Shown: positions 17,155 to 34,434 of the stretch, piece by piece | Layout: each line of letters starts with the position of its first letter | Numbering within the stretch: the first letter of the stretch is position 1 | Assembly (NCBI RefSeq): GCF_000337495.1 | Contig: NZ_AOIS01000027.1 | Span: forward strand, 52,781-108,701 | DNA from: Haloterrigena salina JCM 13891 | Lineage (GTDB): Archaea > Halobacteriota > Halobacteria > Halobacteriales > Natrialbaceae | DNA: 55,921 nt | Direction of reading: 5' to 3' | The notes under the pieces: model-generated | The model's input: the letters and a program-made list of their open reading frames with translations, nothing else | Databases searched by the model: none | What the model was told of the DNA's origin: nothing | Made by a program: the position numbers and the translations under genes

Positions 17155-17594
17155 CCGTCCGATTGTTCGACCGCCCGACCGATCAAACGCCGGCCTTGCC
17201 TTGCAATACCGGTCTCGGGGCTCGAGCAGTTGGCTCACTTGTGCTCGGGTGCGATTCGATCGCCGCGGCTCGGTAGCGGCGAGCGGTTATCGCGTTCGCC
17301 GACGGTTCGACTCGAGCGCCAAACGTCTCCGCACGTACGACTGGCCGTTTGATAGGCCACGAGGAGCGGAGCGATCGACAGTTCGTGGGGTATCCGTGAA
17401 CCGTTATCTGACTTCGACGTCCGTCACTCCGACCACTTTACCCACAGACCGTCAGGCAGCGAACATCGCTATCGATGCAGTGACTGATTGCCGTTTGCTG
17501 TAACGCAGGTGAGCGTCCGTTGTTGTCGTCTCGAATCTGTACCTTGAGCAGCAGGTACGAGCGTGACCGATGAATTATTTAACCCATCCGAACC
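17155..17594. other. Intergenic region at left edge of AT-rich island
   Basis: A 440-nt gap. The first ~400 nt have normal GC and no convincing gene (an open frame at 17201-17503 has arginine/serine-rich shadow-like composition). From about 17560 the base composition switches to AT-rich, marking the island boundary. No tRNA or clear direct repeat was seen at the junction. Confidence 0.4.
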
Positions 17595-17834
17595 ATGGTA
17601 TATATATATATGAGAGAAAGGGTTAAAGCATATGGTTCAGTCCTAGTCTTAGTTGCATATGTAATAAGTGGTAGTATTGCAGCAGGTATGTTTATAAATG
17701 GGGCCTGGATATTGGATAAAATTGGGCTAGTAGGCCTCATTATAGAGATAATTGTAATCAACATCTGTGCGGTTTTATCCCTTCTATATGACATTTCAGG
17801 AAATGCTAAGAAGGTATTCGAAGGACAGGTATAG
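17595..17834 (+). CDS. Small hydrophobic protein in AT-rich island
   Basis: A 79-aa open frame (74 aa from the in-frame ATG at 17610) with two predicted transmembrane helices, about residues 14-35 and 43-65, and a charged C-terminus. Codons are strikingly AT-rich compared with the rest of the window, so it is either recently acquired or spurious. Its hydrophobic pattern is better organised than expected by chance. A TTATTTAA box lies at about 17574-17581. It may belong with the halocin-like gene 0.9 kb away, for example in immunity or export, but nothing shows this directly. Confidence 0.4.
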   Translation: MVYIYMRERVKAYGSVLVLVAYVISGSIAAGMFINGAWILDKIGLVGLIIEIIVINICAVLSLLYDISGNAKKVFEGQV

Positions 17835-18402
17835 TCACCAGAATTGCATCTATTAGTTGGTGAAAATTAATTTACCTTTCCGCAATCCGTAACTAAAATG
17901 GCTGTGTTTTCAAACTAAATACCGGACATCCGTTGAACAGGCACAATTCCACGATCTTTTGTCCATGGTATTGTGCCGTCGCTTAAGATCATGGCCTTCC
18001 AACGATCGCATTGCCTGTGGTTCTAATTCATCCGGCAATTCATAGGAAGGTTTATATCATGGCGAGGTTGGGTTGAACAGAGCAGATTTTGAACAACTTC
18101 GGAGAGGGTCTACCTGTCTACTTAACAAGGCACTGTCCAAGACATTGGCGTGATAGACACGAATCCTTGAAGGAGGTGTCTTTACGCCCTGTTATTTAAG
18201 CAAACCTACGATAACTCTATATCTATCGACATTCCAGCGACTCGTGGCAAAACAAGAAGCAGACTCAAGGTACCGAAGATACGAGCACCGTTAATTTGTA
18301 TAAGAGGAAGGATGAACCTAATATATATATATAGTAAGTAAGGAAATTTATGATTGGGAGCCCCAGAAATTTTTTATACAGAGTTCGCGTATAGATGAAA
18401 TA
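17835..18402. other. AT-rich gap with decayed coding traces
   Basis: A 568-nt gap without an intact gene. Two stretches look like gene fragments. On the minus strand, about 17894-18060, an open stretch includes ELPDELEPQAMRSLEG and MDKRSWNCACST. On the plus strand, about 18077-18199, an open stretch includes LPVYLTRHCPRHWRDR with no start codon, after a stop. I cannot assign either. An alternating TA tract is present at about 18321-18333. The gap is consistent with decay of mobile or acquired DNA. Confidence 0.25.
18373..18378 (+). promoter_or_regulatory. TATA box of 66-aa membrane protein gene
   Basis: TTTATA, inside a T-rich run, ends 25 nt before the ATG at 18403, the ideal distance for leaderless transcription. 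It supports the small gene downstream being real. Confidence 0.5.
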
Positions 18403-18603
18403 ATGCCCACTATTGATACTGGATTCGGGAATGAGGTCTCGATTGAACTCGGTGCACTCATCGTCGCAATCGCGAGTTCGACAGTATTGTTGGCATTTTT
18501 TCTCCTAATCGGACGGAATCCGGTCCTGAGCGTCTTCGAAGTAATCCTTAGCGGAGTTGTGATGGGGACAGCGTACTATCTCGGTCTCAGAAAACGCTCA
18601 TAA
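18403..18603 (+). CDS. Small two-helix membrane protein in AT-rich island
   Basis: A 66-aa protein: a polar start MPTIDTGFGNEVSIELG, two hydrophobic helices (about 16-37 and 42-60) and a basic tail LRKRS, giving both termini the charge expected for a small inner membrane protein. A well-placed TATA box lies upstream. It converges on the halocin C8-like gene with 122 nt between the stops. It could be an immunity or export helper, by analogy with small membrane proteins in bacteriocin loci; that is speculation. Confidence 0.5.
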   Translation: MPTIDTGFGNEVSIELGALIVAIASSTVLLAFFLLIGRNPVLSVFEVILSGVVMGTAYYLGLRKRS

Positions 18604-18725
18604 GAAAACGACATTTCTCACTTTTTAAGAACTTTCGGGTTGGTTACTAATTATTTCATCTGGCGAAATATGATTAAATACACTGATGTCTTATAGTAAA
18701 AATAACCTATAACTCCGTTTTGTTT

Positions 18726-19673
18726 CTATAATTGTGGAATATCGACGTCGAGCGGACTTCCGGGCTTCTCATTGGGCCCACAGATATCAAGTCCAGTTCC
18801 CTTACAGATGGTTGCAGCGACGGGTTCAGCGCACTGCGGAGCCTTGCTGGCCACCCAACATACAGCTCCGACGAAAGCTACGCAACTATATCCACCGATG
18901 AGAGTGATTCCGAGGAGACCACAGAGGAAACCACCACCTGCACCGCAGAGGTTCCGACAGACGAGAGTCGAAGCGTAATAGCAACCGTTACACGTACTAA
19001 TATCTAACTCAGCCGGGAAATCGTCTGGAATGCTGGCAGCGGGGGTGATTCCCTGAGCCGACGACCGCTGATCGAGTTCCGTAATGAATTGTTCCGTAAC
19101 ACGGGGATCAGATTCGATTACTTTTCGCTCGATTTCCTGTTCTGCATTATCCGCTGTGTTTCCTCCAAACGCTTGCACTTCTGTCCCCGCCTCAGCGCTT
19201 GAATCGGCGATCTCGAAACGGATAGTTTCCTCGGGGATACCGTTCCTGTCTAGATGCTCGATATCGAAATTAGCGAAAATTATATTATTGTCGCTCAGAT
19301 CGCGACCAATATGAATCGAGGCATGCTCATCACCATCGCCGCCAACCAAGTTGTAGGAAGCAACTTCACGTCGGAAGGAGCCAGCTTCAGTTTCCCCAGC
19401 ATAAATATTATTCGTTTCCCATTCGAGAGAATACCCTTCCGACTGAGCTCTATTTAGCAACTCACCGAATTCTGCCGTTCGAGCCAAGTCAGTGGCAAGC
19501 GAAAGTTTTCGATCACCTTCGAAAATTTCGACGGGATCTTCCTCAACGACATCCCCTTCAACTGCCTCGGCGGCTGCAACGTTAAGCGACATTGTTGAAA
19601 GGACACCAGTTACTGTTGCGCCTCCACCGATCTTTTTTAGCACGTTTCTCCTGTTGATGTCGTCTCCTGACAT
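18726..19673 (-). CDS. Halocin C8-like precursor (microhalocin with N-terminal immunity-type domain)
   Basis: A 315-aa preproprotein. Residues 8-15 (RRNVLKKI) and the following hydrophobic stretch to VAAAEA form a Tat signal peptide, as in halocin C8. Residues ~38-222 correspond in position to the HalI immunity portion of the ProC8 precursor. Residues ~224-298 form the peptide antibiotic part, with ten cysteines at 228, 231, 239, 243, 251, 264, 272, 281, 290 and 298, the same count and order I know for HalC8, and the shared core GGFLCGLLGIT (248-258). It extends 17 residues past the last cysteine, unlike HalC8. Expected action: release of a heat-stable secreted peptide that kills other haloarchaea. 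It lies alone in an AT-rich island without visible regulator or transporter genes. Confidence 0.85.
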   Translation of the reverse strand: MSGDDINRRNVLKKIGGGATVTGVLSTMSLNVAAAEAVEGDVVEEDPVEIFEGDRKLSLATDLARTAEFGELLNRAQSEGYSLEWETNNIYAGETEAGSFRREVASYNLVGGDGDEHASIHIGRDLSDNNIIFANFDIEHLDRNGIPEETIRFEIADSSAEAGTEVQAFGGNTADNAEQEIERKVIESDPRVTEQFITELDQRSSAQGITPAASIPDDFPAELDISTCNGCYYASTLVCRNLCGAGGGFLCGLLGITLIGGYSCVAFVGAVCWVASKAPQCAEPVAATICKGTGLDICGPNEKPGSPLDVDIPQL

Positions 19674-20220
19674 ACATGAATAAATCTATTACGCCACAAC
19701 TTAATATTTTCTAATTAAATTTATTTAAATAAATAATAAATTATATAATATAGCGTACGAATAAATTTCTATATTTATATTATATAATTCGATTATTTTT
19801 GATGGTTATGATATTCCCTTGAGTTATTCAGTTTGCTATCGAATACATAGGTATAGTGGCTTGACTCGAGACTGCAGTTCTCGACGACAGTCGCTCTCAG
19901 TCGAATAGGTCATTCTGTCGACATACTTCCCTTTCGCGTCGAGATCGAACTCAGGACTTCAACTCCGCCACCAATTACATTCGTAAAAACCGTTCTGTCG
20001 TGCAGTCCTAGAAGATTACTGCCGTCGTCTTCGGCATCTCTCTCAATCGATTTGCTCGGTACACTTGACCAATCCTCGTACGAGGTGTCTCGATCAGTAC
20101 GCTGCCGTTCGACCGAGCGACAGCACGCACCACTGTACGCCGAATCAACGAGTACAAACTGCCGATCGAAAGCGGGACTCGAGAACGCCGCAATCGCTAC
20201 CGAAACGAACGCGACCGGAC
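19674..20220. other. Intergenic region at right edge of AT-rich island
   Basis: A 547-nt gap. The first ~190 nt (to about 19860) are extremely AT-rich, with AATATTAA about 30 nt upstream of the halocin-like gene as a likely TATA region. The remainder returns to normal GC. Short open frames there have no recognisable content. No gene reported. Confidence 0.4.
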
Positions 20221-31883: not shown

Positions 31884-32678
31884 ATGGTAGCGATCGAGAC
31901 GACGGGACTGACGAAACGGTACGGAGCGACGGTCGCCGTCGACGACCTCGAGCTCTCGATTCCCGAGGGATCCGTCTACGGCTTTCTCGGCCCGAACGGC
32001 GCGGGGAAGACGACGACGATGCGGCTGCTGACCAGTCTCACCCGGCCGACGGAGGGGAGCGGCGCCGTCGCCGGCGTTCCGATCACGGACCGGACCGCGC
32101 TCCGACCGCGCGTCGGCTACCTCCCGGAGACGCCGCCGCTGTACGAGCAGGCGACCGGCTTCGAGCAACTCGAGTACGTCGCCGGGCTGCGGGACCTCTC
32201 GTCGGCGGCCGCCCGGGAGCGGATCGAGTCGTTGCTGGCGGACCTCGACTTGCTGGCCGACGCCGACGCGCTCATCGACGACTACTCGACGGGGATGCGC
32301 CAGAAGGTCGCCTTCGTGCAGGCCGTGCTCCACGACCCCGACGTCGTCTTCCTCGACGAACCGACGTCCGGGCTGGATCCGCGAGCGGCCAAGACGATCC
32401 GGGAGCGAATTCGTAGCCTCGCGGACGGAGGCACGACCGTCTTTCTCTCGACGCACATCCTGCCGGTCGTCGAAACGGTCGCCGACGCGGTCGGTATCCT
32501 CTCGGACGGGCAACTGGTCGCCGAGGGTGCGCCCGACGCGCTCGTCCAACGGGCCGAAGCCGGCGACGACGGCACGCTCGAGGACGTCTTCTTCGAACTG
32601 ACCGACGCCGACCCTCTGGGCTCCGCTCGTGATGGTGCCCGCGGCGATACCGAAACTGCGGAGGCGACCCGTGACTGA
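31884..32678 (+). CDS. ABC transporter ATP-binding protein
   Basis: A 264-aa ABC-2-type ATPase. Walker A GPNGAGKT (36-43), Q-loop region LPETPPLYE, signature YSTGMRQK (about 134-141), Walker B VVFLDEPTSGLDPR (about 153-166) and the switch His in STHILP (about 190-195) are all present. It has the long C-terminal part of exporter-type subunits. Its stop overlaps the start of the permease gene (GTGACTGA), so the two form one transporter. Substrate unknown. Confidence 0.93.
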   Translation: MVAIETTGLTKRYGATVAVDDLELSIPEGSVYGFLGPNGAGKTTTMRLLTSLTRPTEGSGAVAGVPITDRTALRPRVGYLPETPPLYEQATGFEQLEYVAGLRDLSSAAARERIESLLADLDLLADADALIDDYSTGMRQKVAFVQAVLHDPDVVFLDEPTSGLDPRAAKTIRERIRSLADGGTTVFLSTHILPVVETVADAVGILSDGQLVAEGAPDALVQRAEAGDDGTLEDVFFELTDADPLGSARDGARGDTETAEATRD

Positions 32679-34434
32679 CTCGAGTTGGGCCCGGACGAGC
32701 CTCCGTATCGGCGTTCTCGAGTTTCGGCGGTCGGTCCGCGCGCTCCGCCGGAATCCGCTTCAGGCCGCCATGATCGGCTTCGGCATGCTCGTCCCGACGC
32801 TGATCGGCGGCTTGGTCGCGATCGCGTTTGCCGAGCAACTCGGGGACATCGAGACGTTCCCGGCCCCCGATTACGCTCGGGGACTGATCGCGCTCTTCTG
32901 GCTGTTCGGGGTGTTTCTCGTCGGTCAGCGCGTCGTCTCCGCGCGCACGCGAATCGAAGCCGAACCGTTCGTCCTGACGACCGTCCCGGAGCGAACGGCC
33001 GCAATCGGGTTGGTCGTGGCGGAGACGTTCCGATTGCTCGCCTATCTCGGCCCGCCGGCGGTACTCGTAACCGGAATCTGCGTCGTCCTGTTCGGCTCGC
33101 CGGCGGCCCTCGTTCTCGTGCCGCTGACGGCGTTGCTCTTCGCGGCGACCGTGGCCGTCACGGGGTCGGCCGCCGGCTACGCGGTGGCCCTGCTCGTGGC
33201 GACGTCGCCGTTCGTCGCCCGCCACCGGACCGTCCTCGGAACGGTCGCGTCGCTGCTCGGAATGGGAGGGTATTTCCTCGCCATGGGGATCGGTCCGTTC
33301 TCCTTCGACCAGTCGTCGCTCGCGTGGCTGCCGATCGGGTGGTTCGCCGACCTCGCGCTGGCCGGCTCCGGACTGCTATCGGCACCGCTGCGGTGGATCG
33401 GCTCCCTCTGTAGTAGCGCGGCGGTGCTGTCCGTCGGCGGACTCGCCGTCAACCGACTGACGGCGACGCTGTGGTTTATCGACCCGGTGGACGTCGTCGC
33501 GGACGAGTCGGACCGGAACGAGGACGGTGCGGCGGAACCGATCGCTCGTCGCGACGCGCTCGCGGCCGCCGCGGCGCCGCTGCCGGTGCCCCGACTGCTA
33601 TCGACGCCGACGCGACGCGTTGCAGAGTGGTCGCTCCTTCGAACGCGACGCGACCCCAACCGGTTGACGTTCCTCATGATTCCCCTCTTCGCCGGCGGGA
33701 GCGCGGTCGTCAATGCGGCCGTCCAGGCCGGCTCGATCAAGACGGTGGCCGCGCCGCTGTGTGCCGTCGCGCTCCCGTGGGCCGTCGGCTCCCTGTTCGC
33801 GATGAACCCCTTCGGCGACGAGGGCGCGGTGCTCCCGGTAACGCTGACGGCCGTCCCGGGCTGTCAGTACGTTCGCGGCCTTCTGGTGCCGGGCCTGCTG
33901 ATCGGCCTCCCGCTCGTCCCCCTCGCGACCGGGCTCGCGACGCTCGTCTCGCCGTACGCGCTGCTCGAGCGCGCCGGCCTGATCGCGCTAAGCGGTTTCT
34001 TGACCTGCGTCGCGGTCGCGATCACGCCGCTGATCGGGATGACGTTCCCACGGTTCAGCGCCATCTCCGTCGGACGGAGCCGCGACGTGATCCCGCCGCG
34101 GATGACCGCCGTGACTCTCCACGCCGCGCTGACGGTCGTCCCCGGAACCGTTCTCGCGGGACTCGTCCTCGCCCCGGAGCTGACGCGAGCGGCGCTGGCC
34201 GGCCTCTTCGGAAGCCTTCCGGCGGTCCTGTTGGAACTGCTCGCGGCCGCGACCGTCGACGTCGTCGCGGCGCCCGCCGACTGGTTCGCCGCGCTCGGCG
34301 ACTGGATCGGAAGCCTGGACCTCGCGGTCCTGCGATTCGGCGGTAGCGGTCTCGTTCTCTTCAGCGGCCTCCTCGTCGCGGCGCTCTCGTACCGCCGCGC
34401 GATCGGCCGTTTCGAGCGGTACACGACGGCCTGA
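32671..34434 (+). CDS. ABC transporter permease
   Basis: A 587-aa polytopic membrane protein with roughly ten to twelve hydrophobic helices, in two halves separated by a charged loop near residues 275-320. It starts VTDSSWARTSLRIGVLEFRR, an amphipathic entry helix like that of ABC-2 permeases, and is translationally coupled to the ATPase by the 8-nt overlap GTGACTGA. An ATG at 32629 in the same frame would give a 50-nt overlap and is less likely. The substrate (drug, lipid or peptide) is not apparent. Confidence 0.82.
   Translation: MTDSSWARTSLRIGVLEFRRSVRALRRNPLQAAMIGFGMLVPTLIGGLVAIAFAEQLGDIETFPAPDYARGLIALFWLFGVFLVGQRVVSARTRIEAEPFVLTTVPERTAAIGLVVAETFRLLAYLGPPAVLVTGICVVLFGSPAALVLVPLTALLFAATVAVTGSAAGYAVALLVATSPFVARHRTVLGTVASLLGMGGYFLAMGIGPFSFDQSSLAWLPIGWFADLALAGSGLLSAPLRWIGSLCSSAAVLSVGGLAVNRLTATLWFIDPVDVVADESDRNEDGAAEPIARRDALAAAAAPLPVPRLLSTPTRRVAEWSLLRTRRDPNRLTFLMIPLFAGGSAVVNAAVQAGSIKTVAAPLCAVALPWAVGSLFAMNPFGDEGAVLPVTLTAVPGCQYVRGLLVPGLLIGLPLVPLATGLATLVSPYALLERAGLIALSGFLTCVAVAITPLIGMTFPRFSAISVGRSRDVIPPRMTAVTLHAALTVVPGTVLAGLVLAPELTRAALAGLFGSLPAVLLELLAAATVDVVAAPADWFAALGDWIGSLDLAVLRFGGSGLVLFSGLLVAALSYRRAIGRFERYTTA

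What the first reader, a model, noticed from the sequence alone, without database searches (positions are those of the whole stretch)
18726..19673. Halocin C8-like precursor with all ten cysteines and a C-terminal extension
The C-terminal ~75 residues keep the ten-cysteine order and the GGFxCGLLGIT core that I know from halocin C8, behind a Tat signal and an immunity-sized N-terminal region. Unlike HalC8, it continues 17 residues after the last cysteine (ending PLDVDIPQL), so the mature toxin may have a different C-terminus or need trimming. No halR-, transporter- or other halocin-cluster gene is recognisable beside it, so regulation and export may differ or depend on the neighbouring small membrane proteins.
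Basis: partly seen in the sequence, partly recalled or inferred. Interest (0 to 1): 0.82.

Follow-up and report, generated by a model that had tools for sequence, protein, structure and literature searches.

The report
Tailed halocin C8-like toxin with companions
A salt-loving archaeon carries an intact gene for a secreted peptide antibiotic of the known halocin C8 family; it belongs to a distinct branch with a conserved 16-20-residue tail, and it sits beside two tiny membrane-protein genes that recur with this branch and with halocin C8 itself and may help protect the producer.

Summary
Window 18726-19673 (-) encodes an intact 315-aa precursor: twin-arginine signal, Halocin-8-like N-terminal domain (Pfam PF22862, E 1.4e-21) and a ten-cysteine halocin C8 domain (NCBIfam TIGR04449, E 5e-11). 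It is a member of a known family. The C-terminal extension is real but not peculiar to this gene: it marks one well-supported branch (13 sequences, 100/99), sister to genuine HalC8; 12 of 13 tails carry [VI]DIP. The new part is the setting. Two small two-helix membrane-protein genes in the same AT-rich island (A 17610-17834, B 18403-18603) have homologues beside tailed halocins and near halC8 itself. In 72,556 plasmids, A and B occur only in the 13 carrying a tailed halocin. Both stay in three loci where the toxin is absent or broken. Across the family, two-helix mini-proteins lie just 3' of 18/42 halocin genes, against 7/201 control genes. I read A and B as likely self-protection or export helpers, which would qualify the 'single gene directs production and immunity' model; that function is inferred. 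The genome also holds a near-canonical halC8 and a second tailed copy with a stop codon in its signal peptide.

The parts
18726..19673 (-). Halocin C8-like precursor gene, 315 aa, intact
19569..19673 (-). Tat-type (RR) signal peptide, residues 1 to about 35 (end judged by eye)
   Evidence: NRRNVLKK...LNVAAA, aligned with other family members
19212..19526 (-). Halocin 8-like N-terminal domain (PF22862), residues 50-154, the region called HalI (immunity) in ProC8
   Evidence: E 1.4e-21; confident helix-loop-helix plus beta sheet in the model
18780..18992 (-). Ten-cysteine halocin C8 domain (TIGR04449), residues 228-298
   Evidence: E 5.1e-11; cysteine spacing
18729..18779 (-). 17-residue C-terminal tail GPNEKPGSPLDVDIPQL, residues 299-315
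   Evidence: conserved in one 13-member clade; Ka/Ks 0.055 on few changes
18403..18603 (+). Gene B: 66-aa two-helix membrane protein, convergent with the precursor gene
   Evidence: homologues beside tailed halocins and near halC8
17610..17834 (+). Gene A: 74-aa two-helix membrane protein (79 aa if the upstream start at 17595 is used)
   Evidence: homologues at the same loci, but also elsewhere
17500..20049 (.). AT-rich island holding A, B and the precursor (43.7% GC against about 69% on both sides)
   Evidence: the part 18613-20048 is missing from the same-genus site L151

Best explanation
This is a functional archaeal bacteriocin gene of the halocin C8 family. Shown by sequence: a Tat-type export signal, a HalI-type N-terminal domain and a C-terminal ten-cysteine peptide domain in one precursor. 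Inferred from halocin C8 (ProC8 gives HalI + HalC8): the precursor is exported, an unknown protease cuts just before the cysteine domain (near residue 221), the disulphide-rich peptide is released to act on competitors, and the N-terminal part restrains it and protects the producer. Inferred, less certain: the conserved ...DVDIP.. tail is a working part of the toxins of this branch, either kept in a mature peptide of about 94 residues or removed as a second pro-region; and the two-helix membrane proteins A and B belong to the system and most likely act at the producer's membrane as extra self-protection (second choice: export helpers). My estimates: about 0.9 for a halocin C8-type precursor, 0.65 for the tail mattering in function, 0.6 for A/B belonging to the system, 0.4 for A/B giving immunity.
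For: Both family models hit above cut-off; ten cysteines aligned with HalC8; purifying selection on precursor, A and B (Ka/Ks 0.20, 0.11, 0.19); tail present in one clade only, and in all its members; A and B in exactly the plasmids with tailed halocins, and A/B-type genes also near genuine halC8; 12 of 17 B places in 391 genomes beside a halocin gene; A/B kept at three loci where the toxin is absent or broken; other two-helix mini-proteins just 3' of halocin genes elsewhere in the family (18/42 against 7/201).
Against: No experiment. [quoted passage not shown]). A is found at many places without a halocin. Five tailed loci lack A, and four or so also lack B, so A/B are not indispensable. B at halC8 loci is only weakly similar at first pass (E 0.083 and 0.0022). 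The mini-proteins of other branches show no homology to B. The window gene has no transporter beside it.
Confidence: 0.7

Rival explanations
1. The precursor alone is self-sufficient, as described for ProC8. A and B are neighbours of the locus for another reason (regulation, membrane stress, transport of something else) and travel with it.
For: ProC8 is reported as a one-gene system (PMC3831642). A is much wider than the halocins. Several tailed loci have neither A nor B.
Against: B is nearly confined to halocin loci. Arrangement of the three genes differs between window and plasmids, yet the set is kept. Plasmid co-occurrence is complete.
Confidence: 0.35
2. A and B are export or maturation helpers: small subunits working with a permease, such as the 534-aa permease-like protein next to B at halC8 loci, rather than immunity proteins.
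For: At halC8 loci B lies 1 bp from the permease-like gene; permease-type genes of this superfamily lie beside several other halocins.
Against: The window and Haloferax larsenii loci have A and B but no permease gene near by; the signal is of Tat type, so no dedicated exporter is needed.
Confidence: 0.2
3. The tail is neutral: an inherited extension with no role in the mature peptide, removed by any extracellular protease.
For: HalC8 itself ends at the last cysteine; hypersaline cultures are rich in extracellular proteases (PMC12893001).
Against: The tail is kept in 13 of 13 members of an old clade, with [VI]DIP in 12 of them; few non-synonymous changes.
Confidence: 0.25
4. The locus is a decaying, horizontally acquired relic that makes no active toxin.
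For: The C13 copy has a stop in its Tat signal. The toxin is missing or broken in several relatives. The island is AT-rich.
Against: The window gene is intact with Ka/Ks 0.20 against its orthologue, and cysteines and tail are kept.
Confidence: 0.08

Closest known systems
Halocin C8 / ProC8 (TIGR04449, PF22862; Sun 2005 and Mei 2008 as cited in PMC11509114)
   Same: Tat-type signal, HalI-type N-terminal domain and ten-cysteine C-terminal peptide in one precursor; nearly the same cysteine spacing; A/B-type genes also occur near genuine halC8
   Different: About 31-34% identical overall; conserved 16-20-residue tail after the last cysteine; A and B lie next to the precursor gene without the HTH regulator and permease found at halC8
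Plasmid-borne 'halocin C8-like domain-containing proteins' of Halobacterium salinarum and Haloferax larsenii (e.g. WP_206536420, WP_229373313)
   Same: Same tailed branch, 39-40% identical over the whole length, with A and B homologues beside them
   Different: Gene order (A divergent upstream, B 19-24 bp downstream on the same strand); on plasmids
Bacterial class II bacteriocin immunity proteins (as a functional analogy for A and B)
   Same: A small membrane or hydrophobic protein encoded next to the peptide gene (general knowledge; contrast drawn in PMC3831642)
   Different: No sequence match to any known immunity family above cut-off; archaeal, Tat-exported precursor with a built-in N-terminal domain
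Halocin H4 and HFX_0892 (HmHapP) protease-activated precursors (PMC12893001)
   Same: Haloarchaeal antimicrobial released from a secreted precursor by proteolysis
   Different: Different precursors; the protease for HalC8-type precursors is not identified

Membership tests
Halocin C8 family | C-terminal halocin C8-like domain (TIGR04449 above cut-off) | tested here: met
   43.4 bits against cut-off 24
Halocin C8 family | Halocin 8-like N-terminal domain (PF22862 above cut-off) | tested here: met
   77.5 bits against cut-off 27
Halocin C8 family | Ten cysteines in the HalC8 order | tested here: met
   All ten aligned, spacing nearly the same
Halocin C8 family | Tat signal peptide | tested here: met
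   RR motif at residues 8-9 and hydrophobic stretch aligned with the family; judged by eye, no dedicated predictor run
Halocin C8 family | Mature peptide ends at or near the last cysteine | tested here: not met
   17 further residues are encoded. This holds for HalC8 proper, not for the family model; trimming is not testable here. It sets the gene apart as a variant rather than out of the family
Halocin C8 family | Antimicrobial activity of the C-terminal peptide and immunity by the N-terminal part | not testable with these tools
   needs expression and assay
Dedicated bacteriocin immunity proteins (for A and B) | Small protein gene adjacent to the toxin gene | tested here: met
   B 122 bp from the precursor gene, A 0.9 kb away; recurrent at related loci
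Dedicated bacteriocin immunity proteins (for A and B) | Sequence match to a known immunity family | tested here: inconclusive
   No family above cut-off in Pfam or NCBIfam; such proteins are diverse
Dedicated bacteriocin immunity proteins (for A and B) | Confers protection | not testable with these tools
   Retention of A/B where the toxin is absent or broken is consistent with protection but does not prove it

The most novel reading that the evidence does not exclude
The halocin C8 family is not a one-gene system: its members are generally paired with a dedicated two-helix membrane mini-protein (B-type, often with A) that protects the producer, and the tailed branch makes a longer peptide whose conserved DVDIP tail serves target recognition or controlled release.
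Probability: 0.3. Interest if true: 0.68.

Novelty: new variant of a known kind. Interest (0 to 1): 0.5.

Why it matters
[quoted passage not shown] the protease that releases it is still unknown (PMC12893001). A recurrent mini-membrane-protein partner, present near genuine halC8 too, is a concrete and testable missing component. The tailed branch is a natural variant for mapping where the active peptide ends and what it binds. One strain with an intact tailed gene, a near-canonical halC8 and a broken third copy is a convenient place to do it.

Tried and rejected
PDB sequence search of the precursor: only chance matches, E 0.035 or worse. Foldseek and VIA-align on the precursor model: nothing with E under 0.001, best Z 4.5; faint cystatin-like rows are not used. 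Folding of the C domain alone with four sequences: pLDDT 41, useless for the tail. Phage and viral-contig searches: no relative. PADLOC: nothing. Genome-contig scan with the single protein: nothing; with an alignment: three loci, which give names (Natrinema thermotolerans, Haloferax larsenii, Halorussus amylolyticus). The ABC pair at 31884-34434 as halocin exporter: rejected, it is 91-92% identical in two same-genus genomes, one of which (G192) lacks the tailed gene. One family for B and the mini-proteins of other branches: no support. Tail depending on A/B: rejected, the tailed genes of L069, L070, L079 and L080 have neither. No tRNA at 15-24 kb and no convincing repeats bounding the island.

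Full report
WHAT IS THERE. The minus-strand ORF 18726-19673 encodes 315 residues. It has an RR-type signal (NRRNVLKK...LNVAAA), a Halocin 8-like N-terminal domain at residues 50-154 (PF22862, E 1.4e-21), a linker, and a halocin C8 domain at 228-298 (TIGR04449, E 5.1e-11). The ten cysteines have almost the HalC8 spacing (2,7,3,7,12,7,8,8,7 against 2,7,3,7,13,7,8,8,5). Seventeen residues follow the last cysteine: GPNEKPGSPLDVDIPQL.

IS IT INTACT. The same-genus orthologue L040 (89% identical at protein level) keeps the same layout. Ka/Ks is 0.20 for the whole gene, 0.21 for the N part, 0.22 for the C domain and 0.055 for the tail; the tail value rests on only four synonymous changes and one non-synonymous change. 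This argues against both a frameshift and decay.

THE FAMILY. Among 391 genomes of the class, 43 carry TIGR04449 matches, and the window's own genome has three. One (contig 17) is nearly canonical HalC8; the domain of L082 (G004) reads, from memory, like the published HalC8 itself. Another (contig 13) is a tailed paralogue whose frame is interrupted by a stop inside the Tat signal. A maximum-likelihood tree of 41 precursors puts all 13 tailed sequences in one clade (100/99). Its sister is the HalC8 clade (the joining branch has 90/86), and the two plus L099 form a 19-member clade with 100/99. Tail length is 16-20 residues in the tailed clade and 0-10 elsewhere, and 12 of 13 tails carry [VI]DIP near the end. 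Many long branches lie outside the 19-member clade, so placements there are unsure.

THE NEIGHBOURHOOD. The precursor sits in an AT-rich island (43.7% GC, flanks about 69%) with two small genes on the opposite strand, A (17610-17834) and B (18403-18603). Each has two hydrophobic segments and no Pfam or NCBIfam match above cut-off. Homologues of both flank tailed halocins in Halobacterium and Haloferax larsenii plasmids in a different arrangement (A divergent upstream, B 19-24 bp downstream). In 72,556 plasmid records B has hits in 13 and A in 13, the same records, and these are the records with a tailed halocin; four of them, of the NRC-34001 type, give only a partial halocin match, and in the one examined the toxin domain is interrupted by ISH30. 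Profile searches then found A- and B-type genes near genuine halC8: at L034 and L082 the order is halC8, HTH regulator, A, a 534-aa permease-like gene, B. First-pass E-values there were 1.4e-8 and 4.7e-5 for A but only 0.083 and 0.0022 for B, so for B at halC8 the case rests partly on position and on iteration.

CLASS-WIDE TEST. B occurs at 17 places in 14 of 391 genomes. Twelve are beside a halocin gene, one is beside a broken HalC8 N-domain remnant (G034) and one is at the syntenic site of the window in G192, where the toxin is absent. The other three are weak matches without a detected halocin but next to an A. A occurs at 52 places in 45 genomes and is clearly wider; in several it sits beside an unrelated 132-aa membrane protein and a small HTH gene. 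So B is nearly specific to halocin loci and A is not. On the tree, 14 of the 19 clade members have A and/or B near by and 0 of the 22 others do; these rows are not independent of one another.

TOXIN LOST, PARTNERS KEPT. In G192 the DNA on both sides of the island aligns at 91-93%, A and B are present, and the stretch holding the halocin is missing. In G034 the permease, A and B are present while only a broken N-domain piece remains. In Halobacterium salinarum plasmid pHcu_235 an ISH30 copy lies inside the toxin domain after residue 264, with A and B intact. Orphan immunity genes would look like this, but so would genes with any other independent function.

BEYOND THE BRANCH. Other branches lack A and B, but taking the whole family, 18 of 42 halocin genes have a 45-110 aa ORF with two or three hydrophobic segments within 350 bp of the 3' end, against 7 of 201 other genes in the same loci (Fisher p about 1e-10, about 3e-8 after collapsing by hand to lineages). 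Thirteen are co-directional within 100 bp, against 3 of 201. The set includes the B genes of the window's branch; ten of the 18 lie outside it and show no homology to B in profile comparison. The recurrence is therefore one of position and architecture. ORF calling was mechanical, the hydropathy cut-off was my own choice, and one of the 42 anchors (L050) may be a distant member.

STRUCTURE. With only four sequences allowed in the alignment, the N-domain was modelled well (blocks up to 93 pLDDT): a helix-loop-helix (53-64, 67-78) followed by an antiparallel sheet. This fits the helix-loop-helix named in the title of the HalI study cited in PMC11509114; the study itself is not in the library. 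The cysteine domain and tail were not resolved.

HOW IT LIKELY WORKS. By analogy with ProC8, which is exported by Tat and matures to HalI plus the 76-residue HalC8 (PMC11509114) through an unidentified protease (PMC12893001): Tat export, cleavage before the cysteine domain, release of a disulphide-rich peptide, restraint and immunity by the N-domain. A and B I place at the producer's membrane as added self-protection (about 0.4) or export helpers (about 0.2). This paragraph is inference.

VERDICT. In kind the gene is an ordinary member of a known family, but it stands for a distinct branch with a conserved tail. The recurrent mini-membrane proteins, also near halC8 itself, are the part worth following up. 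Literature searches showed no open-access paper describing either the tail or these partners; most subscription papers were not searchable, so novelty is claimed only within that limit.

Noticed in passing
L033 4697-5599 (own genome, contig 13): A second tailed halocin C8-like copy whose reading frame is interrupted by a stop inside the Tat signal; probably a pseudogene.
   Followed up: partly
L034 9682-17185 (own genome, contig 17): A near-canonical halC8 with, next to it, an HTH regulator (HVO_A0261_N/FilR1-type), an A-type gene, a 534-aa permease-like protein without Pfam match and a B-type gene 1 bp from the permease gene.
   Followed up: partly
L066 8025-10810 (Halobacterium salinarum plasmid pHcu_235): An ISH30 copy lies inside the toxin domain of the tailed halocin; A and B are intact.
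   Followed up: partly
L151 5440-5986 (G192, same genus): Site syntenic with the window where A and B are kept and close together but the halocin gene is absent.
   Followed up: yes
L083 6424-6609, L084, L093, L096, L102, L046, L053, L062, L014: Tiny two-helix membrane proteins just 3' of other halocin C8-family genes, not detectably related to B.
   Followed up: partly
L168, L169, L175 around 5 kb: A-type gene beside a 132-aa membrane protein and a small XRE-type HTH gene, a context without halocin.
   Followed up: no
window 31884-34434: DrrA-like ABC ATPase plus 601-aa permease of the same superfamily as the permease-like protein at halC8; conserved in the genus with or without the tailed halocin.
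   Followed up: yes
L063 8001-8933 (Haloferax larsenii NCIM 5678 plasmid): The strain listed in PMC11509114 as producer of halocin HA3 (13 kDa) carries a tailed halocin C8-like gene with A and B; whether the two are connected is untested.
   Followed up: no
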